Source of the DNA: Fibrobacterota bacterium
GTDB lineage: Bacteria; Fibrobacterota; Fibrobacteria; UBA11236
Direction: 5' to 3'
Length of the DNA stretch: 54,930 bases
Assembly: GCA_028287505.1 (NCBI GenBank)
Contig: JAQBPN010000005.1
Span: forward strand, 1-54,930
Shown here: positions 18,697-33,526 of the stretch, piece after piece
How positions within the stretch are numbered: the first letter of the stretch is position 1
How the letters are laid out: each line of letters opens with the position of its first letter
Translations under genes and position numbers: made by a program
The notes under the pieces: model-generated
The model's input: only the letters and a program-made list of their open reading frames with translations
The model's database searches: none
Told to the model about the DNA's origin: nothing

Positions 18697-19002
18697 TCCT
18701 TACGACAGCCCCTTCCCGACCTTGTAGGGTTTTGTTTTTTTGTAATACGGAATTCCACCATTACCAATTAATTGAGGAGTAAATACGTAATATGATTATA
18801 GGTGTATTGATCTGTTCCTGAACGCAATATCCGCTTTTATTTGCTTAAATAATGAATAAATATCATGGAATACGTAATATCCTATGAATCTAATCATTTC
18901 TCATACACTGTAATTCGGGTATCATTAGAACGTAAGCACCAAAGGCATAGGGAATCCCAAGTGGAATACCCGGCCGAAGAAACCCCCGAAAGGAGTGCTC
19001 TC
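18697..19002. promoter_or_regulatory. AT-rich promoter and leader region of 843-residue lipoprotein gene
   Basis: About 300 bases, abruptly AT-rich from 18725 to 18920 (runs of T, many TAAT/ATAT words), then a clear aaggag (18990-18995) seven bases before ATG 19003. Several possible -10 boxes occur, so a single promoter cannot be fixed. An in-frame upstream ATG at 18865 exists but has no ribosome binding site. Confidence 0.45.
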
Positions 19003-21534
19003 ATGAAAACCCGAATCACCTCCAACAAAAAAATCCTCGTCGCCGCGACCGCAGCGGGAATGTTCCTGCTCGCAGGATGCTTCAGCGACCCTTCCTCCCC
19101 CTCCGGCGACCAGGGGGACATGACCGCGACCATCGAAGGCCGCGTGCAGGGCGATGCGGCCCTCGGCAAGCGCTCCGCCGGATCGGCCGGGATCGAGGGT
19201 GCTACCGTAACCGTTATGCGTATCAAGTCCGACGGATCCCTGGAAGCGGCCGCTTCGGCGGAAGTGAAGACGGACGTCCAGGGCCGTTTCTCCGTGAAGA
19301 CGGCGGCGAACGAAACCCGCGAACTGGTGGTGGTGGCTAAGAAAGAAGCCAAGGAATGGAAGGCCGTGGTGAGCGCCAAGGTGAAGCAGGGAACCGTGGT
19401 GGTCTGCCGCCCCCTCGACACGGAATCCTCCGTGGAAGCGGATGTCCTGGTCAAGGTCCGGGGCGAGTCCAAGACCATGGAAGTCTCCTTCGCCGACATC
19501 GCGTCGCATATCGACGCGGAAATGTCCCTGAAGGCGAGCGGCAAAGCCGACGTGGAAGCCTATCTCTCGGCCCAGGTGCAGGCGGAAGCCAAGGCCCGCG
19601 CTTCGATGCTGCTGGCTTCCTCCGGGAAATTCACCTTGGCCCAGATCGACAAGGCCAATGAGGCCCGCATGGATGCGGAAGCCAAATTGGAAAGCGACCT
19701 GGACGCCGCCGGGGATCTCTCCGCGGATGCCAAGGCCAAGATCGAAACCGATTTCCAGACCGCCGGATTCAAGGCTTGGTCGGATGCCGGCATCGTCCTG
19801 GGCGAGGTGGCCAAGGCCCACGAAGCTTCCTACGAGGCGATGGTCCGGATCAGCGCCGGCGCCACCGTGGAATCGGAAACCAAACTGACCTGGCTGCACA
19901 AGATCGCCCTGGAAAATGCCGTCACCCTGGAAGCCGCGGTGAAAGAGGACGTGAAAGCCTCGGGGGGCCAGAGTGAAATCGCCGTCGATGCCGGAACGGC
20001 CTTGAAGGCCTCCTTGATCGCGGCCAAGACGGAAACCGAAATCGACTCCGCTTTCGCGACCTTCCGAGCCTCGGTGTCTTCGGGACTCAAGGGTTTCGTG
20101 GAAACCACCCTGGGCGGCAAAGTGCTTCTCAACGATTCTTCCAAGGCCCGCATGGAATTGAAGGCTTCCCTGGAAACCGCCGTCACGGCGGATAAGGTCG
20201 CGGAAGCGTACCAGAAGTTCTACGTCTCCGCCGAAGCCGAAATCAAGGCCAAGATCGCCGGCTCCATCGGCACGGCCGATTCCGCCAAGGTCAACGCCCT
20301 GACCCGCACCGCGCTTCTCATCGGCATCCAGGGTAACGGCGGGGCTACCGTCATCCTGCCCGGATTCTCCCTGAGCGGCAACGTCGAAGGCGGCGTCTCC
20401 GGCGCCGACGTGCAGATTGCCAAGGTCAACGCCGACGGCTCCCTGGAAATCATCGGCGAGATCAAGACCCAGACGGATGCCCAAGGCGGGTTCACGATCC
20501 ATACCGATACCAAGCTGCCGGACTCCGTGGTGGTGGTGGTGACCAAGAACGATTCCAAGCTCATGGTCCTGATCGACTCCGCCACTTCCAAGCCCGTGCA
20601 GGTGGGTACCGAGACCACGGTGGAAACCCAGATCGTCCAGCAGCTCATCAAGGACGGAAAGACGGGGATCACCTCCGAGGAGATCAAATCCCACGTGGAC
20701 AGCAACGTGGCGGCGGAAGTCAAAGGCAACGATAGCGCCATAGCGCATCTGATCGGCAGCCTGGAACTTGCCGCCAAGGCCCAGAACGGCTTCCTGCTCG
20801 ACAGCGGTTTCGGACTCTCCGCTTCCGGCCTCAACCTGATCGCCTCGGCCCGCGCGGGCGCCCAGACCAGGCTGGAAGCCGACCTGAAGGCCGCCGCCGG
20901 CGCGGCCGCCTCCGTGCAGGCCGCTTATGACGCCTACCACCGGACGGTGGTGGACGCCTATGTGCAGGCCGGCCTCGACGCGAATACCTACGCCAAGTCC
21001 ATGCAGGTCTACGCCCAGGCGCTGGCCCGCTTCACGGTCGGCGTCACGGCGGAAGCGAAGTTCTCCCTGATCAAGAGCGCCCACGCCCAGGCCGCCCACG
21101 GACTGCGCACCGCGGCGGAAGCCCAGGTGAAGGCGGCCGGCGCGACGGATGCCACCCTCAAGACCTTCATGCAGGCCGGAGCCGCTTTCCAGGCTTCGGT
21201 GGATGCCGCCGTGAGCGCGGAAGCCATCGCCTCGGCGTATGCGGCCTATGATGCCTCGGTCACGGCCTCCCTGAAGGCCGCGCTGATCCTGCAGGCTTCC
21301 GCCATCGAAAGCCTCAATGCCAAAATCCGCGCCGCGGACGGCGCCCGCGCCGATTTGATGGCCAAGGTCCAGGCCGCCGCCGATGCGGACGCCGCGGCCA
21401 AGGCCCACGTGGAGTTTTCGGCGGCGGTGCAGACCCAGGTGAAAGCCGCTTTCGGCGGGGGCCTGGGCGCTCCCACCGGCGCGCAGGTCGATGCCATGGC
21501 CCAGGCCATGATTCTGGCCAACATGGGCGGATAG
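19003..21534 (+). CDS. large Ala-rich lipoprotein with internally duplicated beta/helical architecture
   Basis: An 843-residue lipoprotein: signal peptide with lipobox LLAGC (Cys26). It has two repeats of one design. A beta-sandwich (about 38-150, carboxypeptidase-regulatory-like: EGRV..GATVTVMRIKSDGSLE..DVQGRFSV) is followed by a long Ala/Lys/Glu helical region (about 160-450). A second sandwich (about 455-560: SGNVEGGVSGADVQIAKVNADGSLE..DAQGGFTI) is followed by another helical region (about 560-840). The helices are rich in heptad-like Ala, suggesting coiled coils or helical bundles. It is probably anchored in the outer membrane and spans the periplasm or cell surface. Monocistronic with its own terminator. 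No family recognised. Confidence 0.78.
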   Translation: MKTRITSNKKILVAATAAGMFLLAGCFSDPSSPSGDQGDMTATIEGRVQGDAALGKRSAGSAGIEGATVTVMRIKSDGSLEAAASAEVKTDVQGRFSVKTAANETRELVVVAKKEAKEWKAVVSAKVKQGTVVVCRPLDTESSVEADVLVKVRGESKTMEVSFADIASHIDAEMSLKASGKADVEAYLSAQVQAEAKARASMLLASSGKFTLAQIDKANEARMDAEAKLESDLDAAGDLSADAKAKIETDFQTAGFKAWSDAGIVLGEVAKAHEASYEAMVRISAGATVESETKLTWLHKIALENAVTLEAAVKEDVKASGGQSEIAVDAGTALKASLIAAKTETEIDSAFATFRASVSSGLKGFVETTLGGKVLLNDSSKARMELKASLETAVTADKVAEAYQKFYVSAEAEIKAKIAGSIGTADSAKVNALTRTALLIGIQGNGGATVILPGFSLSGNVEGGVSGADVQIAKVNADGSLEIIGEIKTQTDAQGGFTIHTDTKLPDSVVVVVTKNDSKLMVLIDSATSKPVQVGTETTVETQIVQQLIKDGKTGITSEEIKSHVDSNVAAEVKGNDSAIAHLIGSLELAAKAQNGFLLDSGFGLSASGLNLIASARAGAQTRLEADLKAAAGAAASVQAAYDAYHRTVVDAYVQAGLDANTYAKSMQVYAQALARFTVGVTAEAKFSLIKSAHAQAAHGLRTAAEAQVKAAGATDATLKTFMQAGAAFQASVDAAVSAEAIASAYAAYDASVTASLKAALILQASAIESLNAKIRAADGARADLMAKVQAAADADAAAKAHVEFSAAVQTQVKAAFGGGLGAPTGAQVDAMAQAMILANMGG

Positions 21535-21581
21535 ACCAGATCGGCGCCCAGGGACGAGCGAGGAGAGGCTTACCACTAGAG

Positions 21582-21640
21582 CTGTCAGCATGAAGGTGGG
21601 TAAAAAGGAGAGGGCTCAATACTCTCCTTTTTACTGACAG
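21582..21640. terminator. strong intrinsic terminator
   Basis: A 12-bp stem (21601-21612 with 21622-21633, TAAAAAGGAGAG/CTCTCCTTTTTA) is enclosed by a 7-bp outer pair (CTGTCAG 21582-21588, CTGACAG 21634-21640). The A/T-tracts would allow termination from both directions. Confidence 0.85.
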
Positions 21641-22964: not shown

Positions 22965-23291
22965 TTATTCGCTGAATACCTGCAGTTTTCTCGATAAATT
23001 GGCGTCTGTTCCGCTTTGATATTCATAGAAGACCTGAATCTTCTTTCCCTGAGCCTGGGCTGCAAGGAGCGTCGCCATAACGGACTTCAAGTCATCTATA
23101 TCTACATAACTATCTCCTTGTAGAAAATAAAAAGGTTTAGCAACTTCGTTAGTAAGGAAGGTAACCTTGCTATTCGCTTGGTCAGCTTCCCACGAGACAG
23201 ACTTGATCGTAAGCAAATCCCCCCAAGAAAACGCGGCTTGAGTTGCAATCGGGATCCATAAAGTGGCGAGAAAAAAGTAGAGCGGTTTCAT
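22965..23291 (-). CDS. small secreted protein of unknown function
   Basis: A 108-residue protein; ATG 23291 starts a good signal peptide (MKPLYFFLATLWIPIATQAAF) with aaaggg upstream, so the longer frame to 23339 is not used. The mature part has the order SVSWEADQANSKVTF..KPFYFLQGD..LKSVMATLLAAQAQGKKIQVF, ending soon after. The same layout (beta hairpin, helix, GK-type strand) appears in the gene at 30315 and in the remnant at 24235, so I treat them as distant relatives. Function unknown. Confidence 0.65.
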   Translation of the reverse strand: MKPLYFFLATLWIPIATQAAFSWGDLLTIKSVSWEADQANSKVTFLTNEVAKPFYFLQGDSYVDIDDLKSVMATLLAAQAQGKKIQVFYEYQSGTDANLSRKLQVFSE

Positions 23292-24876: not shown

Positions 24877-27237
24877 ATGCCGAAGCTCGGCCGACTTTGC
24901 ATGTTAGCGCCGGCTTTTGCCGCGGCGGCCCTCCTCGGCGGTCTAACGAGTTGCATGCGCGGAGACGGATTCGCCTCTCCCTCCGATGAGCGGAACCTCC
25001 GGCCGTTGGGAACCTTTACCGGTAAAGCGCTCTTCGGCACGGACACGGCGGCCCGCAGCCGGGTCATCGACCTGGTCCACCCCAAGGTGGCTGTCCTATG
25101 GCGTTCCGTCGGGCACAGGGACAAGGTGACTTCCAGCGGCCAGGCGGTCATCGATGCGTTTCCCCCCTTCGCTTTTACCGTCAACCTGCTGCAACCGCCT
25201 CCCAAGGAGGTGATTGACGCGCCGGAGATTTCCTTCGGATTGGTCTGCCTTTTCTCGGACGTGAACGGCAATGGAAGCTTCGACCGCGTCATGGATCCCC
25301 GTTTCACCCCGGGGTATGCCGTCGTCGATTCCCTGACCCACGTCTACGAGCGGGCGCGGGATTCCCTGGCGGCCCATTCCATGACGGAACACCGCAGACT
25401 GGTGACCGAGTTCTTCCATCTCGAGCCTTCCGGACTCATCGTCCGGGAAGACGGGAACACGCCGGATACCATGTGGTCCAAGGATGTCGTCCTGAACAAC
25501 GACGGCGACATCGGCTTCGAAAGCTTCCTCGGATATGTCCGCGTGCTCGAACTCCAGAACCGCTGGGAACGCTTTTTCGCCCAGCGCAAAAAGGATAACG
25601 AATACTTCTACAAGGAGTTCCCCACCCTTGAACATCCCCGCAGCTTCGAAATCCGCTATGAGCGGTCCATTTTCCCGAAACCGGGCCAGGAGGAGGAGTT
25701 CAACCGCTGGGCAAAGCGTACGATCCTGGCTTGGAACATCTTCGGAGTGGAATCCGTCCGCCTTCTGCAAAAGGCGTTTGTGACCGGAATGCTGGACTAT
25801 CCGTTCTCGGGATACGGAGAACCGGGGCAGGATTGGATGGCGGGGCGGAGCATTACGGACCTGCTTCTGTTTCTTCCCACGGAAGCCAGCCTCGATTCCC
25901 TGCGCGACGCCGTTGCGGGAAGCTCTTTCCGCATCGACCATTCGGAGCGGATGCGGCAGGGGTACAACCTTGTGCACTGCGACGACCAGTACGTTTGCGA
26001 CGTGCGGGCCGTGCGAGATTCCATTCTCGTATATCTCGGCGCTTCCGAGGCCTATTTCAACGCGCCGGCCACCCCATCCAAGAGTCCCTTTCCTTCGCCC
26101 GGGAAAAAGCCTGCGGTGACGCCTGTCCAGGCATTGGCGGCATTCCAGGGGCGCTACGCCCTCAATGGCAGCGATACCGTCACCCTGGCGGACCGCGGCG
26201 GAGAGCTTTGGTGCGATGCCGTCGGGCTAGGCCTGTTGCGCGTTCTGCCCATCGACTCTTTCGGAGTCTATTCCCCCAAGGTGGATTTCCAGGGACTCCT
26301 CACGCCCGGTGAGTTTGGACGGCCGGACCGGTTGGTCCAATATCAGGGCGACTATCGCTTCGTTTTCGAGCATATGGGGACGAGTGTTCCCGACGACCTC
26401 CTGTCCCGCATCGACCGGGCCTCCGGGTTCATCCGCGTGGATCTCCCGGATTCCGTGCTGGGCCGTTTCGCGGGGATTTTCGATTATGGGGGGGATACCC
26501 TCCGCATCACCTTGGCCGGCGGCGACAGCCTCAACGCCGCCATTCCCGGTCTGGCCAAGCTGGTTTTCCATGCCGCGGGGGATTCCCTGTTCCGGTGCCC
26601 TTGGGGGGAGTGGTCGCTCGCCTTCCAGGGATTCAACGGCCGATCGTTCGATCGGGTGGTTTTCGCCAACGGGGGCGTGAAAAAAAATGTCCCCGCATTC
26701 GGCCAGTTACCGTCCAAGCTTGTGAAATCGGTCCGGGAGGACGATTCGGGAATCCAATGGGTATCCGCGCAGGCGGGCACCGGACGGGACGTATCGGTGG
26801 AGGTGAACGGCCGGAACCACTACGCCTGCTCGGACGACGGGCTATTCCTGCGTCCGGGGGACGGATACCTGGAGGGGTTTTCCCGCACCGGCCCGACCGA
26901 TTCGATATCGTTGAGGCAGGGCGGGGACTTGGCCGCCTTCCGCATCCCGGGAATGCAGGGAAAGACGGCGGTTCTCGAGTTGCGGCAATGCGCCGAGAGG
27001 ATCGCGAAAAGCAAAAGGATCAGGATATCGGTATGGGCGGGATCGGATCGGGAAAACCTTCGCTTGTTGTACGGCGATCACCAATGGATGGATTCGGACA
27101 CGTCCGGAGTCTATTGGTCCTTCGACTCCCTGGCCGTCGACTCGGATCCGTTCTACCTGGTCCTGAAGCAGGAAGATACCCGGGACGCCCCCTTCCGCAA
27201 CGCGTTCGACGGGTACCGCTTGGGGATTCGCCCGTGA
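24877..27237 (+). CDS. large lipoprotein, first gene of the ECF/caspase operon
   Basis: A 786-residue lipoprotein: signal peptide with lipobox LTSC (Cys26), ATG 24877 chosen because gagg lies five bases upstream and the signal begins there. The first third contains a calcium-loop-like DVNGNGSFDRVMDPRF and a long helical segment. The middle has two similar lipocalin-like modules (about 425-495 and 525-605: FQGRYALNGSDTVTLADRGG and FAGIFDYGGDTLRITLAGG) that resemble DUF3471-type repeats. The last 150 residues form a beta-sandwich. Its stop overlaps the start of the sigma factor gene as GTGA. It may be the surface sensor or substrate of the system; that role is inferred from gene order only. Confidence 0.72.
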   Translation: MPKLGRLCMLAPAFAAAALLGGLTSCMRGDGFASPSDERNLRPLGTFTGKALFGTDTAARSRVIDLVHPKVAVLWRSVGHRDKVTSSGQAVIDAFPPFAFTVNLLQPPPKEVIDAPEISFGLVCLFSDVNGNGSFDRVMDPRFTPGYAVVDSLTHVYERARDSLAAHSMTEHRRLVTEFFHLEPSGLIVREDGNTPDTMWSKDVVLNNDGDIGFESFLGYVRVLELQNRWERFFAQRKKDNEYFYKEFPTLEHPRSFEIRYERSIFPKPGQEEEFNRWAKRTILAWNIFGVESVRLLQKAFVTGMLDYPFSGYGEPGQDWMAGRSITDLLLFLPTEASLDSLRDAVAGSSFRIDHSERMRQGYNLVHCDDQYVCDVRAVRDSILVYLGASEAYFNAPATPSKSPFPSPGKKPAVTPVQALAAFQGRYALNGSDTVTLADRGGELWCDAVGLGLLRVLPIDSFGVYSPKVDFQGLLTPGEFGRPDRLVQYQGDYRFVFEHMGTSVPDDLLSRIDRASGFIRVDLPDSVLGRFAGIFDYGGDTLRITLAGGDSLNAAIPGLAKLVFHAAGDSLFRCPWGEWSLAFQGFNGRSFDRVVFANGGVKKNVPAFGQLPSKLVKSVREDDSGIQWVSAQAGTGRDVSVEVNGRNHYACSDDGLFLRPGDGYLEGFSRTGPTDSISLRQGGDLAAFRIPGMQGKTAVLELRQCAERIAKSKRIRISVWAGSDRENLRLLYGDHQWMDSDTSGVYWSFDSLAVDSDPFYLVLKQEDTRDAPFRNAFDGYRLGIRP

Positions 27238-27767
27238 GCGGAGCCCAGGCCGTTCCCGATCTGGAGCAGGTGTTCCGCAAGTACCGGGACTTTGTGTACC
27301 GTACATGTTACCGGTATTTCCGCGACCCGGGAGACGCTGAGGATCTGGCCCAGGAGGTTTTCCTCAAGCTCCACACCCGGCTGCCCGCCTTCCGCGGCGA
27401 CTCCGCGCTGACGACTTGGATCTACCGCATCGCGGCCAATTGCTGCATCGATGCGCTCCGCAGCCGCAGGAACCATGTCGCTTACGAGGAGGCGAATCTC
27501 GACGACATGGTGGGGCGGAACCTCGCCGGCCATGGAGACTCGGTGCTGGCCCGGATCGATCTGAACCGGATCCTGGCCCATACCGATGACCGGACACGGG
27601 AAATCCTGTTCCTTTCCCTTGCGGAAGGGTGCAGTCACGAAGAGGTCGGGGACTTGGTGGGCATGTCGAAGTGGGCGGTCACCAAGACCATCAATCGATT
27701 CAAACAGAAAATGCAGGCCGGCAAAAAAGCCTGGCTGTCGGAGTTGTTCACAAGGGAGGTCCCATGA
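27234..27767 (+). CDS. ECF-type RNA polymerase sigma factor
   Basis: A 177-residue sigma-70 family factor. Region 2 is at about 12-78 (FVYRTCYRYFRDPGDAEDLAQEVFLKLH, then TWIYRIAANCCIDALRSRR) and region 4 at about 115-165 (DDRTREILFLSLAEGCSHEEVGDLVGMSKWAVTKTINRFKQKM). The frame is open far upstream inside the lipoprotein gene. The GTG at 27234, overlapping the previous stop as GTGA, is the natural start. The downstream gene overlaps as ATGA. It presumably directs transcription of its own operon under control of the next gene product. Confidence 0.92.
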   Translation: MSGAQAVPDLEQVFRKYRDFVYRTCYRYFRDPGDAEDLAQEVFLKLHTRLPAFRGDSALTTWIYRIAANCCIDALRSRRNHVAYEEANLDDMVGRNLAGHGDSVLARIDLNRILAHTDDRTREILFLSLAEGCSHEEVGDLVGMSKWAVTKTINRFKQKMQAGKKAWLSELFTREVP

Positions 27768-28546
27768 AGCTCGATGAAAGGATTTCCACGGAAAACGGGA
27801 ATCCGCGGAGACCGATCTCTTTCCTGAAGATGGAAAAAGCCATTCTCGGAGAGGCAACCGCTCAGGAGCGCGTCCAATTGGAGCGGGAATTGGCGCGGGA
27901 TGACGGTTTGAACGAATATTTCGCCGAGATGAAAGCGACCCGCTCTTCCCGGGACTGGCCGCACCTGCGGCGTTTGCTGCCCGCATCCGTTTCCCGCGAG
28001 GCCGGCCTGGGAACTACCCTGGCCGGATGGCTGGAGACCCTGTTGCCCAGGCCTTCCCGATCCGTAATGGCTTGGTCCGCCGCTTTCGCCATGGTGCTCC
28101 TGTTGGTCCTTCCCGTCACCTGGGTCCGCATGCAGGAGGAGAGCGGACTCCGATCCAAGGGCGGCTCCCGTCCCGAGGTCAACGTGGAGGTGGGCGGAGT
28201 GCGCTTGGCGCCTGGCCAGAGCCTGCACGTGAAGAATGGGGATATCCTCACTTTCTCCTACCGCAGCGCCAAACCCTTCTATTCGCAGATCTGGTACGCG
28301 GAAGACAGCGGCGTTCCCAGCCATTTCGAGGGCAAGGAAGAGGCCAGCCTATATTGGCCGCCGGCTTCCTCCTGGAAGAAGGCCCCCCAGCGCATCCGCT
28401 TGGAAGGGAATTGGAAGGTCCAGCGGATCCTGATCCTCGCTTCGCCGGAATCCGCCCCGGGCGCGGATGTGGGCCGCGTCCTTTCCGGTCAGGAAAAGCC
28501 CAAGCAGGGCTCATACCTCTTCACCTTCGACCTGCTGCAGCCGTGA
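27764..28546 (+). CDS. putative membrane-anchored anti-sigma factor
   Basis: A 260-residue protein with a cytoplasmic N-terminus (about 1-95) that has the usual anti-sigma opening (MEKAILGEATAQERVQLERELARDD, a DUF1707/zf-HC2-like position but without a HxxxCxxC zinc motif), one transmembrane helix (about 101-122) and a periplasmic beta-rich domain (GQSLHVKNGDILTFSYRSAKPFYSQIWY). Position directly after the ECF gene, with a 4-bp overlap, fits an anti-sigma role. The periplasmic domain resembles DUF4384-type domains often found next to caspase-like genes. Direct evidence of sigma binding cannot be read from sequence. Confidence 0.78.
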   Translation: MKLDERISTENGNPRRPISFLKMEKAILGEATAQERVQLERELARDDGLNEYFAEMKATRSSRDWPHLRRLLPASVSREAGLGTTLAGWLETLLPRPSRSVMAWSAAFAMVLLLVLPVTWVRMQEESGLRSKGGSRPEVNVEVGGVRLAPGQSLHVKNGDILTFSYRSAKPFYSQIWYAEDSGVPSHFEGKEEASLYWPPASSWKKAPQRIRLEGNWKVQRILILASPESAPGADVGRVLSGQEKPKQGSYLFTFDLLQP

Positions 28547-30141
28547 CCCGATCCTTGCTCTTCAAGGCGATGTCGGCGATGCTGTGCCTATGCCTGGCCG
28601 GCCGGGCCGAGGTGCGCCGCATCAGCCTGTTCATCGGAGTGGATCAGGGCCTGGAATCGGAGGTCGCCCTCAAGTTCGCTTCCCGCGACGCCGCCGAGAT
28701 GGCCGGACTCTTCCGCCAAACCGGTCTCTACGGGCCCGAGAACGTGATGTTCCAGTCCAACGCGTCCCTGGATCAGATCCGCCGCGCCATGAGCGCCGTG
28801 GAGGCGACCGCCATCAAGTGGAAAAGCCAAGGGGCGCAGACCTATCTCTTCGTCTACTTTTCCGGCCATGGCGACGCGCAATCCCTGCACGTGCGCGGAC
28901 AAAAGCTGAAGCGGGACGATCTGGTGGCCTGGCTCAACAGCCTTCCCTGCGAACTCAAGATCGTGGTATTGGACGCCTGCGAATCGGGTGATTTCCTGCG
29001 CTCCAAGGGCGGCCGTTTCCTCCAGGACCTTCCCGTGCGCATCGACGATAATCTCAAAAGCCATGGCGTGGTCATCGTGAGTTCCACTTCCCGGGGCGAG
29101 CTGGCCCAGGAGAGCGATGAGTACAGGGGCGCGGTATTTACGCATCACCTGGTGAATGGCCTGCGGGGGCTCGCGGACTACAACAGGGACGGATGGGTCA
29201 GCCTCCAGGAGTCCTTCGAATACGCCCGCCGCGCCACCGCCACCGATGTGGCCATGTCCGGGGCCCTGCACCAGAACCCTTCCTTCGATGTCGATCTGGT
29301 CGGCGGATCCGACCCGGGCCTGATCCCCATCGACCGGGAGAAATCCTGGATGCTGCTGCGGCATTTTCCCTCCGGCACCCTGGACGTCTTCGATGCGGGA
29401 TCCCTGGACCTGGTCTCGCGGGTCTGGCTTTCCGGAGCGGACAGCCTGGCCTACCGTATCCAGACGGGAAGCTACCTGTTCCGGTTCCGCGAGGGCGGCC
29501 GCGAATATCTCCACTCCGAATCCGTGAGCAAGAACGGCGGAGTGCTCATCGATCGCACGCGCTTCCAGGAGAAAGTGGCGCGCGCCTGGGCGAGCAAGGG
29601 CGGCTACTCGGTGCGCCTCAACGGTTTCCAGACCGCTTACGGATCGCCGCATCCCTTCCCGGGGTTTTCCATGGGCATGGCCAGGCTTTCCTATGTGTCG
29701 CGCACCGCGTCCGACAAGCTCTCGGTTTTTTTCGGCGTCGGATCGGGACGGAGTTCCGACTCCGCGACGGGGCTTTCCAACCGGCTGGATCTCTACAGGA
29801 TGGGCGTTGCGCGCACCTTCTTCCTGGCCGGGAGCCGCCGCATCCGGTTTTCCGCGGGGGGCATGGCGGCCTATAACCTGGTTCGCCAATCCGTTCGGGA
29901 CGGGCGGTTCGCCGGGCCCGACATTCCCGGGGCCTTCGGCACCGTGCCGGCAGACCAGACCGATTGGTTTGATCTCTACCAGGCCGCCGTGCCGCTGGAA
30001 CTGGAATGGAACGTGACCGGTCGCTTCTGGATTTCCGGGGAACTCGATTACTCCGTCTACGGCTATCAGGATCGCGCCCGAAACTATTTCCGGACCCGGC
30101 TGGAAATGGAGCCTTTTCTGCAGATGGGATTCCATCTGTAG
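28543..30141 (+). CDS. caspase-like (C14, clan CD) protease with C-terminal barrel-like region
   Basis: A 532-residue protein with a short signal sequence (about 1-22). The caspase-like domain (about 25-250) has the His/Cys dyad: His109 in YFSGHGD and Cys146 in VVLDACESG. A small beta domain follows (about 265-345). The last 180 residues are Gly- and aromatic-rich alternating strands (RLSYVSRTASDKLSVFFGVGSG, ELEWNVTGRFWISGELDY), ending MGFHL, like an outer-membrane beta-barrel. That would place the catalytic domain in the periplasm. GTG 28543 overlaps the anti-sigma stop as GTGA. It may cleave the anti-sigma factor or lipoprotein; this is inference. Confidence 0.85.
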   Translation: MTRSLLFKAMSAMLCLCLAGRAEVRRISLFIGVDQGLESEVALKFASRDAAEMAGLFRQTGLYGPENVMFQSNASLDQIRRAMSAVEATAIKWKSQGAQTYLFVYFSGHGDAQSLHVRGQKLKRDDLVAWLNSLPCELKIVVLDACESGDFLRSKGGRFLQDLPVRIDDNLKSHGVVIVSSTSRGELAQESDEYRGAVFTHHLVNGLRGLADYNRDGWVSLQESFEYARRATATDVAMSGALHQNPSFDVDLVGGSDPGLIPIDREKSWMLLRHFPSGTLDVFDAGSLDLVSRVWLSGADSLAYRIQTGSYLFRFREGGREYLHSESVSKNGGVLIDRTRFQEKVARAWASKGGYSVRLNGFQTAYGSPHPFPGFSMGMARLSYVSRTASDKLSVFFGVGSGRSSDSATGLSNRLDLYRMGVARTFFLAGSRRIRFSAGGMAAYNLVRQSVRDGRFAGPDIPGAFGTVPADQTDWFDLYQAAVPLELEWNVTGRFWISGELDYSVYGYQDRARNYFRTRLEMEPFLQMGFHL

Positions 30142-30756: not shown

Positions 30757-32394
30757 TTATCGGGCCGTCTGGCCGCTCAACCCCATCATGATGTGATTTC
30801 CGGGGTTGGAAGGCATGCTGCCGGGAAGGATGCGAACGCCGCGATTGTCGGCTGTTTCCCGACCCAGCAGATCCCGCCATCCCGCGAGCGGCCCGAATGC
30901 GCCTGTGAACGCCTCCTTCCGCCCCCAGGGTAACCGGATGGCTACGGCCGCTCCCGCGGCCAGGCTCCGCTTGGCGTTCAACCGCCCATGCCCGTAATGC
31001 ACGTCGAACCCCGGAGTATCCTGCGCCGGATCGCCCACGCCGTCATCGGCGCCCGCTTCCAGCAGGCGCTTGAGGTCCGCGGGCTTGCGGGCGGGATCCT
31101 GGGCCAGCAGGAGCGCGCAGACCCCGGTGACATGGGGCGCCGCCTGGGAGGTCCCGCTCCAGTAGGTGCCGTACTCGTTGCTGTCCGAGAAGTGCAGCCC
31201 GTAGATGAAATTACCCGGGGCGCAGACGGAAATGTGCGGCCCGTAATTGCTTCCCTTGGTGGTGTCCCAGGGAAAGGATTTCACGTACCGGTCGTCGGGA
31301 CCGGTGGCGCCCACGGCGATGACCCCGTCGAAGGCGGCGGGATAGTCCGGCACGTCGCTGCGCGAGTTCCCCATGGAAATCACCATGGCCACGTTCCGTT
31401 GCAAGGCGTAGTCGATAGCGTTGTGCAGGACGGTGGTATTGCCGTTGGGCCCGCCCATGGACATGTTGATGACGCGCGCGCCGTTGTCGACCGCGTATCT
31501 GATGCCCGCCGCCCACCAGCTGAAGTATCCCCAGTTCTGGTTGTTCAGCACCTTGACCGGCATGATGGTGCAGCGCGCCACTCCCGCCATCCCGAAACCG
31601 TTTCCGCTAATGGCGCCGATGATGCCGGCCACGTTGGTGCCGTGCCCAAGCCCATCGCTCACATCGGCGCTTCCCGGAAGGGATTCGTTCTGGGCATCGT
31701 TGGCGAAGGCCCAGCCGTTCACGTCGTCGATGAAACCGTTGCCGTCGTCATCCTTGCCGTTGCCGGCGATCTCGCCCTTGTTCACCCACACCCGGGCGGC
31801 GATGTCCGGATGTTTGGTGTTGAGGCCGCAATCCAGGACCGCCACCAGGATGCCCGTGCTCCCGGGATTCAGGTCCCAGGCCTCCACGGCCTTGATGTCC
31901 GCGCCCGCCTTGCTCTGGGTGGTTTCGAATTTCCGGACCCCTGGATTCCTCAATCCGTATTGCAGGTTGAAATAGGGATCGTTCGGATCGGCCGCGATGC
32001 CGGCGCCGCCCGCCGCGCCCATTGTTGAAGCCGCGCCATGCCCGAACCCGATCCCGTCCAACTCCACCAGATCGAACCTGCCGGTGGCCTTATAGGCGTC
32101 CAGCAGCGCCTTTTCGGAAACCGCGCCGCGGGGGAAGCGGAGGACCAGGGTCCCTTCCTTTTCGTCCCAGGGGCACATGCGGGCGATGGGCTTGCAGGCG
32201 AAGCGCCGGCCGAGATTGTCCAGATCGGCGGAGGCGAAGCGGGGGTAACGCGCGGGTTTCGGGTTGGAGGCGGAGAGCGGGGTATTTGCGGAGGGAAGGG
32301 GAGAGGGGGCTTGGAGCAGGGTGGTGGGTTTGGGGTGGACCAGCAGGCGGATTTCCGGGGGGAGCGATGGGCCCTGGGAAGCGGATGCCGACAA
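30757..32394 (-). CDS. subtilisin-like serine protease (S8 family)
   Basis: Secreted-type subtilase of 545 residues with Asp188 (VAVLDCG), His251 (GHGTNVAG), oxyanion Asn343 (MGNS) and Ser416 (SGTSQAAPH), so it looks active. A propeptide-like segment lies at about 75-115 and a calcium loop DDDGNGFIDD at about 215-224. In this frame the protein begins with a TTG in MSASASQ and has no signal peptide. One base out of frame just upstream lies a perfect signal peptide (MVFSFVLRLNLGLLVFLLF) with a TTG at 32498 and ggag seven bases before it. A single-base loss at about 32400-32415 would explain this. Convergent with the 30315 gene. Confidence 0.9.
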   Translation of the reverse strand: MSASASQGPSLPPEIRLLVHPKPTTLLQAPSPLPSANTPLSASNPKPARYPRFASADLDNLGRRFACKPIARMCPWDEKEGTLVLRFPRGAVSEKALLDAYKATGRFDLVELDGIGFGHGAASTMGAAGGAGIAADPNDPYFNLQYGLRNPGVRKFETTQSKAGADIKAVEAWDLNPGSTGILVAVLDCGLNTKHPDIAARVWVNKGEIAGNGKDDDGNGFIDDVNGWAFANDAQNESLPGSADVSDGLGHGTNVAGIIGAISGNGFGMAGVARCTIMPVKVLNNQNWGYFSWWAAGIRYAVDNGARVINMSMGGPNGNTTVLHNAIDYALQRNVAMVISMGNSRSDVPDYPAAFDGVIAVGATGPDDRYVKSFPWDTTKGSNYGPHISVCAPGNFIYGLHFSDSNEYGTYWSGTSQAAPHVTGVCALLLAQDPARKPADLKRLLEAGADDGVGDPAQDTPGFDVHYGHGRLNAKRSLAAGAAVAIRLPWGRKEAFTGAFGPLAGWRDLLGRETADNRGVRILPGSMPSNPGNHIMMGLSGQTAR

Positions 32395-32659
32395 GGCTTC
32401 GAATGCCTGAATAAAAGGAAAACCAGTAATCCCAGATTAAGCCTAAGAACAAATGAGAACACCATATTGAAATATGTTGGCGCTTTAGGCATGTCCAAGT
32501 CAAGTCTCCTTGCTTAATCAAAGGGATTCCACGTTTGCGGACGTTGAGAAAATGGTAACCAATGGAATTGGTGCTTGCTTTTATTTGAACGTGTGGTACC
32601 TTCATTTCAACTTTAATCCGATGGTTTTCCAACCAAACGGTTTAGAGAGGGGATTCCGA

Positions 32660-33526
32660 ATGAAAATCTTGATTTCCGCGCTTTTGTTCGCAGTTCAGGT
32701 CGCAAAAATCCATGCAGCAGGATATTTCGGATACGGTCTTCCGGTATATCTCGACCAAAACACTAATACCATTGAACATTACAGCCCGGCTTTGCCGGAA
32801 CCAATCCGCAGCCATTCACATGGGAATTCCTTCGCGAATAGTCTGAAATCATCAATCAATGCGAATTATCCGGGTATTTATGTAAATCGGGTCGATCATC
32901 GCGATGCGGCGGTTACCTACAATTTTCTCGTGAATGACGGCTCCATCCAAAGCTATGAAATGATTTTTTATTCAGGTCACGGAAAAATCGGAGCGTCCGG
33001 GGATAATACCGGCAATGAAGCCGCTTTCGTAACTTACGAACATGGTTTTGTGCGCCCCTCCAGCAAAACGTACGGGACATGGAATCGGTGGGTCTTCACC
33101 GATTTCTGCCAATTCCTGAGAAACCACAATCCTTACTTTTACCAGAATATGTTCGGAGGGCTTCACGCTGTCTTCGGATACGAATCAAATATGTACTTCT
33201 ACATATACGGTTATGATTGCTTTCCATGGGGATGCGGAGGTCATGACCGCTCCGAAGACAAGTGGATACCTTTCGGCCCCAATTGGGCTAAGCCCAACGG
33301 GAAAAAAATGTGGGATGACTACAAAGACATAAACCTTTATGAACAATACGTTGTCGGCCACAGCAGCAACGCTCCGGCGGTCGTATATAACGCCTATATA
33401 GGCTGGCAGGGTGCAAGCATATTTCTCGGGCATACCGAATATATCACAAACATCTTCAATGGGGATGTGCCGATCGGGACGTTGAAACATGAATACGTAA
33501 TCAACGGTACGCCAACTTATAATTGA
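32660..33526 (+). CDS. secreted protein with caspase-like His/Cys dyad (DUF6345-like)
   Basis: A 288-residue protein. ATG 32660 has gagagggg six to seven bases upstream and starts a signal peptide (MKILISALLFAVQVAKIHA); the longer frame is not used. The core contains MIFYSGHGKI with His107, then RWVFTDFCQFL with Cys150, and FGGLHAVFGYESN. The spacing and strand context resemble the His-Gly and D-x-C motifs of clan CD (caspase/gingipain) folds. The layout resembles DUF6345, though I cannot run the search. It is the first gene of a three-gene secreted cassette (32660-34905) that is visibly AT-richer than flanks. Catalytic activity is unproven. Confidence 0.72.
   Translation: MKILISALLFAVQVAKIHAAGYFGYGLPVYLDQNTNTIEHYSPALPEPIRSHSHGNSFANSLKSSINANYPGIYVNRVDHRDAAVTYNFLVNDGSIQSYEMIFYSGHGKIGASGDNTGNEAAFVTYEHGFVRPSSKTYGTWNRWVFTDFCQFLRNHNPYFYQNMFGGLHAVFGYESNMYFYIYGYDCFPWGCGGHDRSEDKWIPFGPNWAKPNGKKMWDDYKDINLYEQYVVGHSSNAPAVVYNAYIGWQGASIFLGHTEYITNIFNGDVPIGTLKHEYVINGTPTYN

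What the first reader, a model, noticed from the sequence alone, without database searches (positions are those of the whole stretch)
24877..30141. Coupled lipoprotein, ECF sigma, anti-sigma and caspase-barrel operon
Four genes overlap by exactly 4 bp (GTGA 27234, ATGA 27764, GTGA 28543). They encode a surface lipoprotein, an ECF sigma factor, a single-pass membrane protein in the anti-sigma position, and a periplasmic caspase-like protease fused to a barrel-like tail. Classical ECF systems release sigma by proteolysis of the anti-sigma factor with site-1/site-2 proteases. Here a caspase-like protease is encoded in the same unit and could play that role. The lipoprotein could be sensor or substrate. 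This arrangement is not one I can name.
Basis: partly seen in the sequence, partly recalled or inferred. Interest (0 to 1): 0.78.

Follow-up and report, generated by a model that had tools for sequence, protein, structure and literature searches.

The report
Caspase–anti-sigma–sigma signalling gene module
Three linked bacterial genes make a gene-switching protein, the membrane protein that probably holds it inactive, and an exported caspase-like protease; a matching, almost invariant cut-site motif in the last two suggests the protease cuts the restraint to switch genes on, which would be a use of caspases across a cell envelope that I could not find described.

Summary
The four overlapping genes are real. 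The conserved unit is three of them: ECF sigma, single-pass anti-sigma, exported caspase. In 61 Fibrobacteria genomes 70 of 71 strong anti-sigma homologues have a caspase directly downstream. The unit also occurs in Myxococcota (83 of 100), Bradymonadales and a Gemmatimonadaceae MAG. The lipoprotein belongs only to the window's close relatives. Family members show the middle protein is an anti-sigma (zf-HC2 finger, one TM helix, DUF4384 domain).

New evidence for mechanism: in 50 non-redundant loci the anti-sigma carries K-G (48) or R-G (2), typically 10-40 residues outside the membrane, in alignments with only 17-22% mean identity. The caspase carries K-G in all 50, normally at catalytic Cys+9, in a loop modelled as disordered. 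Consensus R-x-K|G is shared; the window has LRSK|GG in both proteins. The caspase keeps its His-Cys dyad and the two acidic residues expected for Arg/Lys specificity.

Best reading: the caspase is the site-1 protease that cuts the anti-sigma at K|G. No cleavage was tested, and some DUF4384 anti-sigmas without a neighbouring caspase also keep K-G. I found no earlier description; the key ECF classification paper was not held.

The parts
24877..27237 (+). lipoprotein, 786 aa, lipobox LTSC; first gene of the window's operon, accessory (close relatives only)
   Evidence: no Pfam/NCBIfam match; homologues only at L005, L078-L081, L087 and the same loci refetched
27234..27767 (+). ECF sigma factor, 177 aa (regions 2 and 4)
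27764..28546 (+). single-pass anti-sigma factor, 260 aa
   Evidence: (relatives: zf-HC2 + DUF4384)
27812..27949 (+). anti-sigma domain, residues about 17-62 (no zinc ligands in this member)
   Evidence: helices 20-62; hhalign to zinc-finger members 93.6%, E 2e-7 for this single pair
28049..28108 (+). transmembrane helix, residues 96-115
28157..28162 (+). K132-G133, proposed caspase cleavage site LRSK|GG at the end of a disordered segment (117-131)
   Evidence: K 48, R 2, G 50 of 50 non-redundant loci
28163..28543 (+). periplasmic DUF4384-like beta domain
28543..30141 (+). exported caspase-like protease with beta domain and C-terminal beta-barrel, 532 aa
28543..28608 (+). putative Sec signal sequence
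   Evidence: hydrophobic N-terminus in 77 of 82 relatives
28687..28689 (+). Asp49, predicted S1-pocket acid
   Evidence: invariant; aligned with the metacaspase 'NDa' Asp
28867..28869 (+). His109, catalytic
   Evidence: invariant
28972..28980 (+). D144-A-C146: predicted second S1-pocket acid and catalytic Cys
   Evidence: D and C invariant
29005..29010 (+). K155-G156, proposed self-cleavage site LRSK|GG at Cys+9, in a low-confidence loop (154-166)
29176..29211 (+). EF-hand-like loop DYNRDGWVSLQE, possible Ca2+ site
   Evidence: D212 81/82, D216 75/82, E223 81/82
29617..30135 (+). eight-stranded outer-membrane beta-barrel (predicted)

Best explanation
The unit is a transmembrane ECF sigma/anti-sigma switch whose site-1 protease is an exported caspase-like enzyme. 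Resting state (inferred): the anti-sigma holds the sigma factor with its N-terminal domain and displays a DUF4384-type beta domain in the periplasm, joined to the membrane helix by a flexible stretch ending in R-x-K|G. The caspase is exported and, in most members, anchored in the outer membrane by a C-terminal barrel with its protease domain facing the periplasm. On a signal (unknown; Ca2+ or a change at the outer membrane are candidates) the caspase cuts itself at K155|G156 in its inter-subunit loop and cuts the anti-sigma at K132|G133. That removes the periplasmic domain and leaves a short stub suited to an RseP-type site-2 protease, after which sigma is freed. Shown here: gene linkage, domain make-up, conserved catalytic and pocket residues, the matched cut-site motifs, an RseP-type gene in the genome. 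Inferred: both cleavages, their order, the signal and the sigma release.
For: Linkage: 70/71 strong anti-sigma homologues have a caspase directly downstream in Fibrobacteria and 83/100 in 39 genomes near Archangium. All six caspase-family loci of the window's genome are sigma/anti-sigma/caspase triads. Co-inheritance r 0.82-0.88. Anti-sigma identity: zf-HC2 in 21/54, DUF4384 in 30/54; TM helix; profile match to zinc-finger members. Cut site: K-G is the only pair invariant in 37 anti-sigmas; across 54 at 17% mean column identity G133 is invariant and K132 at least 90%; three of the exceptions are Arg (L084, L113, L123). Caspase: invariant His, Cys and both S1 Asp, nearest solved sequences are metacaspases, K|G at Cys+9 in 79/82. 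P4-P2 of the two sites match within loci more than after shuffling partners, also within lineage groups (65 identities vs 51, p 0.0002). Both sites lie at modelled disordered loops. Negative controls: 13 ASD-related anti-sigma-like genes without a caspase lack K-G; distant caspases without an ECF partner lack K-G at Cys+9 (L124-L126, L128, L129, L132, L134). RseP-type protease in the genome, 213 bits. C14 members other than true caspases prefer Arg/Lys at P1 (PMC5756287).
Against: DUF4384 anti-sigmas with no caspase next to them also keep K-G in Myxococcota (L167, L184-L191; L192 has lost it), so the motif may serve another purpose or be cut in trans. A barrel anchored in the outer membrane is far from a site a few residues above the inner membrane. 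Only two DUF4384 proteins that are not anti-sigmas were available as controls. The P4-P2 test is weakened by shared ancestry. The L109 locus has M|G. Caspases of the VDVC type (L050, L052, L072, L074) lack an OMP-like C-terminus. No complex could be modelled and no promoter motif was found.
Confidence: 0.68

Rival explanations
1. Reverse direction: the anti-sigma's R-x-K-G and DUF4384 domain act as a docking site or pseudosubstrate that inhibits the caspase, which is the output enzyme of the sigma regulon (envelope remodelling or self-digestion). Sigma is released by another protease.
For: Same linkage and matched motifs. Cyanobacterial orthocaspase papers mention DUF4384. One caspase per sigma unit also fits an effector role.
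Against: K-G lies at the end of a disordered stretch between membrane and domain, where a cut would do most for sigma release. The caspase carries the same site in its own inter-subunit loop, the usual place of self-cleavage.
Confidence: 0.15
2. K-G is a structural feature of this family's juxtamembrane/DUF4384 region and the caspase is merely a co-regulated neighbour whose true substrates are elsewhere.
For: K-G persists in DUF4384 anti-sigmas without adjacent caspase. K-G directly precedes the first modelled strand.
Against: Lys to Arg exchange while Gly stays fixed, the same motif in an unrelated protein of the same locus, and its absence from non-DUF4384 anti-sigmas and two other DUF4384 proteins. 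K-G lies upstream of the Pfam domain.
Confidence: 0.12
3. A phage-defence or cell-death module of the EACC/CHAT kind in which the sigma factor is one of several outputs.
For: Caspases coupled to ECF sigma genes are known in EACC2 neighbourhoods (PMC8195603); weak PADLOC caspase match.
Against: The caspase here is exported and barrel-anchored; the EACC1 model scores 55.5 bits against a cut-off of 140; near-universal single copy per genome in one genus fits an envelope response better than a variable defence locus.
Confidence: 0.04

Closest known systems
sigma-E / RseA / DegS / RseP regulated intramembrane proteolysis
   Same: ECF sigma, single-pass anti-sigma, periplasmic site-1 cut, RseP-type protease present in the genome
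   Different: the site-1 protease would be a cysteine protease of the caspase fold encoded in the operon, with its own matched self-cleavage motif; no RseB or PDZ-trypsin in the unit
CASP/Craspase: Cas7-11-Csx29 (TPR-CHAT), Csx30, CASP-sigma (PMC10028731)
   Same: caspase-fold protease cuts an inhibitor of an ECF sigma factor
   Different: Craspase is RNA-activated and CHAT type and Csx30 is not an envelope protein; here the caspase is exported C14-type and the anti-sigma spans the membrane
EACC1/EACC2 caspase systems with ECF sigma genes (PMC8195603)
   Same: caspase and ECF sigma encoded together
   Different: different caspase subfamily (NF047832 cut-off not reached); no anti-sigma with DUF4384 or barrel described in the passages read
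ECF54 sigma factors with CHAT/subtilase/carboxypeptidase neighbours (PMC8999054)
   Same: protease of caspase fold near an ECF sigma
   Different: proposed to act without an anti-sigma factor
Orthocaspase MaOC1 cutting a neighbouring antitoxin (PMC7935541)
   Same: bacterial caspase homologue cuts an inhibitory protein encoded next to it
   Different: toxin-antitoxin pair, not a sigma factor; known here from title and abstract only

Membership tests
ECF sigma factor | regions 2 and 4 only, no regions 1.1/3 | tested here: met
   177 aa; Sigma70_r2 1.2e-20, r4 weak (below cut-off), TIGR02937 above cut-off
zinc-type membrane anti-sigma factor | HxxxCxxC finger in the N-terminal domain | tested here: not met
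   absent in the window's protein, present in many relatives (zf-HC2 21/54)
membrane anti-sigma factor (general) | N-terminal anti-sigma domain followed by one TM helix, gene next to cognate sigma | tested here: met
   profile match to zinc-finger relatives, TM helix 96-115, overlap with sigma gene
membrane anti-sigma factor (general) | binds and inhibits the sigma factor | not testable with these tools
   no complex prediction or binding assay available
peptidase C14, metacaspase/orthocaspase-like | His-Cys dyad | tested here: met
   H109, C146 invariant
peptidase C14, metacaspase/orthocaspase-like | acidic S1 pocket (two Asp) for Arg/Lys at P1 | tested here: met
   D49 and D144 invariant, aligned with metacaspases; pocket role from general knowledge and PMC5756287
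peptidase C14, metacaspase/orthocaspase-like | cleavage after Arg/Lys | not testable with these tools
   needs enzyme assay
regulated intramembrane proteolysis system | site-2 (M50) protease in the genome | tested here: met
   G000:C100, 213.5 bits
regulated intramembrane proteolysis system | site-1 cut demonstrated | not testable with these tools
   inferred from motif only
Craspase (type III-E) | CHAT-type protease | tested here: not met
   CHAT 18.2 bits, cut-off 24; C14 instead
EACC1-associated caspase | NF047832 score over cut-off | tested here: not met
   55.5 of 140 bits

The most novel reading that the evidence does not exclude
The caspase is both sensor and protease: while its barrel is folded into the outer membrane it is kept away from the inner membrane, and when outer-membrane assembly fails the uninserted caspase-barrel protein stays in the periplasm, activates by self-cleavage at K|G and cuts the anti-sigma. 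Bacterial caspases would then be an ancient envelope-stress signalling protease rather than death enzymes.
Probability: 0.2. Interest if true: 0.92.

Novelty: new variant of a known kind. Interest (0 to 1): 0.78.

Why it matters
Bacterial caspase homologues are widespread and few have a known substrate. Here the proposed substrate, the exact bond and the downstream output are written in the sequence and conserved across at least two phyla, with one copy per genome in most genomes of one genus and several per genome in myxobacteria. If confirmed, it adds a cysteine-protease site-1 enzyme to transmembrane sigma signalling, gives bacterial caspases a regulatory role outside cell death, and is a counterpart across the envelope to the CRISPR-linked caspase that controls a sigma factor.

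Tried and rejected
Four-gene unit as the conserved entity: rejected, the lipoprotein is lineage-restricted. Lipoprotein as substrate: no conserved R-x-K|G. ECF promoter upstream of 24877: no match in the scans; L005, L078 and L087 share GGTTAGATAT, absent from the window, left unexplained. Two broader caspase alignments were too divergent for the collection scan. Wrong-frame or wrong middle ORFs first picked in L043, L048, L093, L100, L103 and L121 were corrected with an HMM. A supposed similarity between the small proteins at 22965 and 30315 was not supported. The main ECF classification paper (Casas-Pastor et al. 2021, known to me from memory) was not held, so an existing ECF group number for this sigma cannot be excluded.
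Full report
WHAT IS THERE. The four ORFs and their three 4-base overlaps are exactly as reported. The second gene is an ECF sigma factor and the fourth a caspase-domain protein by Pfam and NCBIfam; the first and third have no match by themselves. The window's genome (6.07 Mb, 130 contigs) holds six members of the caspase family, each behind a sigma and a middle gene.

HOW FAR IT EXTENDS. A caspase search of 61 genomes (the window's and 60 relatives) found a match in 52. Reading the neighbourhoods gave the order sigma / single-pass protein / caspase on the same strand almost everywhere. A search with an alignment of the middle protein gives 71 strong hits, 70 of them directly upstream of a caspase. 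Of three caspases without one, two are in genomes of one genus (G045, G057); in G045 sigma plus anti-sigma lie on one contig and the caspase on another. A scan of 84,980 species genomes found 57 loci; the triad occurs in Archangium, Myxococcus, Pyxidicoccus, Nannocystis, other Myxococcota MAGs, Bradymonadales and one Gemmatimonadaceae MAG. In 39 genomes near Archangium, 83 of 100 strong middle proteins are followed by a caspase, several of the rest having one in another orientation. Distances between the three proteins correlate at 0.82-0.88 over 69 loci, 0.18-0.22 when partners are shuffled within lineage groups. The lipoprotein is found only with the closest relatives.

WHAT THE MIDDLE PROTEIN IS. 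Among 54 relatives 21 match zf-HC2, the zinc finger of anti-sigma factors, and 30 match DUF4384. The window's member lacks zinc ligands but its N-terminal profile aligns with the zinc-finger members (93.6% probability for this single comparison; via an intermediate group, 97%). AlphaFold2 gives helices 20-62, a TM helix 96-115, a disordered stretch 117-131 and a beta domain 138-258. In 16 Fibrobacteria genomes all 14 DUF4384 hits are at these loci.

WHAT THE CASPASE IS. The model (pLDDT 86) has a caspase domain, a beta domain and an eight-stranded barrel; PDB matches are caspases and legumain for the first part and OmpA/OmpX/NspA/Ail for the last. Closest solved sequences are metacaspases. His109, Cys146, Asp49 and Asp144 are invariant. 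That the two Asp form an Arg/Lys-accepting S1 pocket rests on general knowledge of metacaspases and on PMC5756287. An EF-hand-like loop is conserved, so Ca2+ dependence is plausible but untested. A hydrophobic N-terminal stretch is present in 77 of 82. With an even number of strands and an N-terminal protease, the protease domain is expected on the periplasmic side (inference).

THE MATCHED SITES. In 37 anti-sigmas of the class the only fully invariant residues are K132-G133. With Myxococcota added, 54 sequences at 17% mean column identity keep only G133 invariant besides Met1, with K132 at 90% or more. In the full set of 82 loci (six are refetched duplicates) the exceptions to K-G are Arg in L084, L113 and L123, Met in L109, and a truncated protein in L114. 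The caspase has its own K-G, at Cys+9 in 79 of 82, at the start of a loop with pLDDT below 50. Both sites have Arg at P3 in most loci (39 and 43 of 50), and P4-P2 agree within loci beyond shuffling, also within lineage groups (65 identities against a mean of 51, p 0.0002), though shared ancestry makes this p optimistic. In the window both sites read LRSK|GG. The two proteins are unrelated in family and fold, so a common protease explains the match best.

CONTROLS. Thirteen ASD-related anti-sigma-like proteins from the same genomes without a caspase do not have the motif. Distant caspases without ECF partner lack K-G at Cys+9; family members without a detected partner gene keep it. Two DUF4384 proteins that are not anti-sigmas lack it. 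The control that does not favour the hypothesis: caspase-less DUF4384 anti-sigmas in Myxococcota keep K-G (L167, L184-L191) except L192. The genomes concerned that were searched with the caspase model carry caspases of the family elsewhere, so cleavage in trans is possible but unproven.

MECHANISM. Inferred: the caspase cuts itself and the anti-sigma at R-x-K|G; the remaining short stub is handed to an RseP-type protease, which the genome has; sigma is released. The signal is unknown. An outer-membrane anchor and a cut site near the inner membrane are hard to bring together, which motivates the idea that failed barrel insertion is the trigger (probability about 0.2).

COMPARISON. It works like DegS/RseA/RseP and, in using a caspase fold to free a sigma factor, like the CRISPR-linked Csx29/Csx30/CASP-sigma system (PMC10028731), but is neither: it is not CHAT type and the parts sit across the envelope. 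EACC2 neighbourhoods and ECF54 show caspase-fold proteases near ECF genes (PMC8195603, PMC8999054). Eight searches of the open-access library found no description of this unit; most subscription papers and the main ECF classification paper are not held, so this absence is limited evidence.

Noticed in passing
window 32510-33526 (+): Secreted DUF6345 protein with a 'FYSGHG' motif resembling the caspase/gingipain His motif, 2.4 kb downstream of the caspase.
   Followed up: partly
window 30757-32394 (-): Subtilisin-family protease (PF00082 7.7e-48) on the opposite strand just downstream.
   Followed up: partly
L183 (G045:C208) and L071 (G045:C210): In one genome sigma plus anti-sigma and the caspase lie on different contigs, yet both proteins keep K|G: a natural test of action in trans.
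   Followed up: partly
L109: Two caspases in tandem; the anti-sigma has M|G instead of K|G and the first caspase's K-G is shifted to Cys+11.
   Followed up: no
L041 4878-5590 (same contig as L080): The ECF sigma gene appears split into two overlapping frames (frameshift or sequencing error).
   Followed up: no
L043/L103, between anti-sigma and caspase: An extra lipoprotein-like gene (about 430 aa) is inserted between anti-sigma and caspase.
   Followed up: no
L005, L078, L087 near the start of the lipoprotein gene: Shared GGTTAGATAT element close to the gene start, not found in the window.
   Followed up: no
window 18865-21534 (+): Long Ala/Lys/Glu-rich lipoprotein-like ORF with an equally long open frame on the other strand (18925-21591), probably a composition effect.
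   Followed up: no
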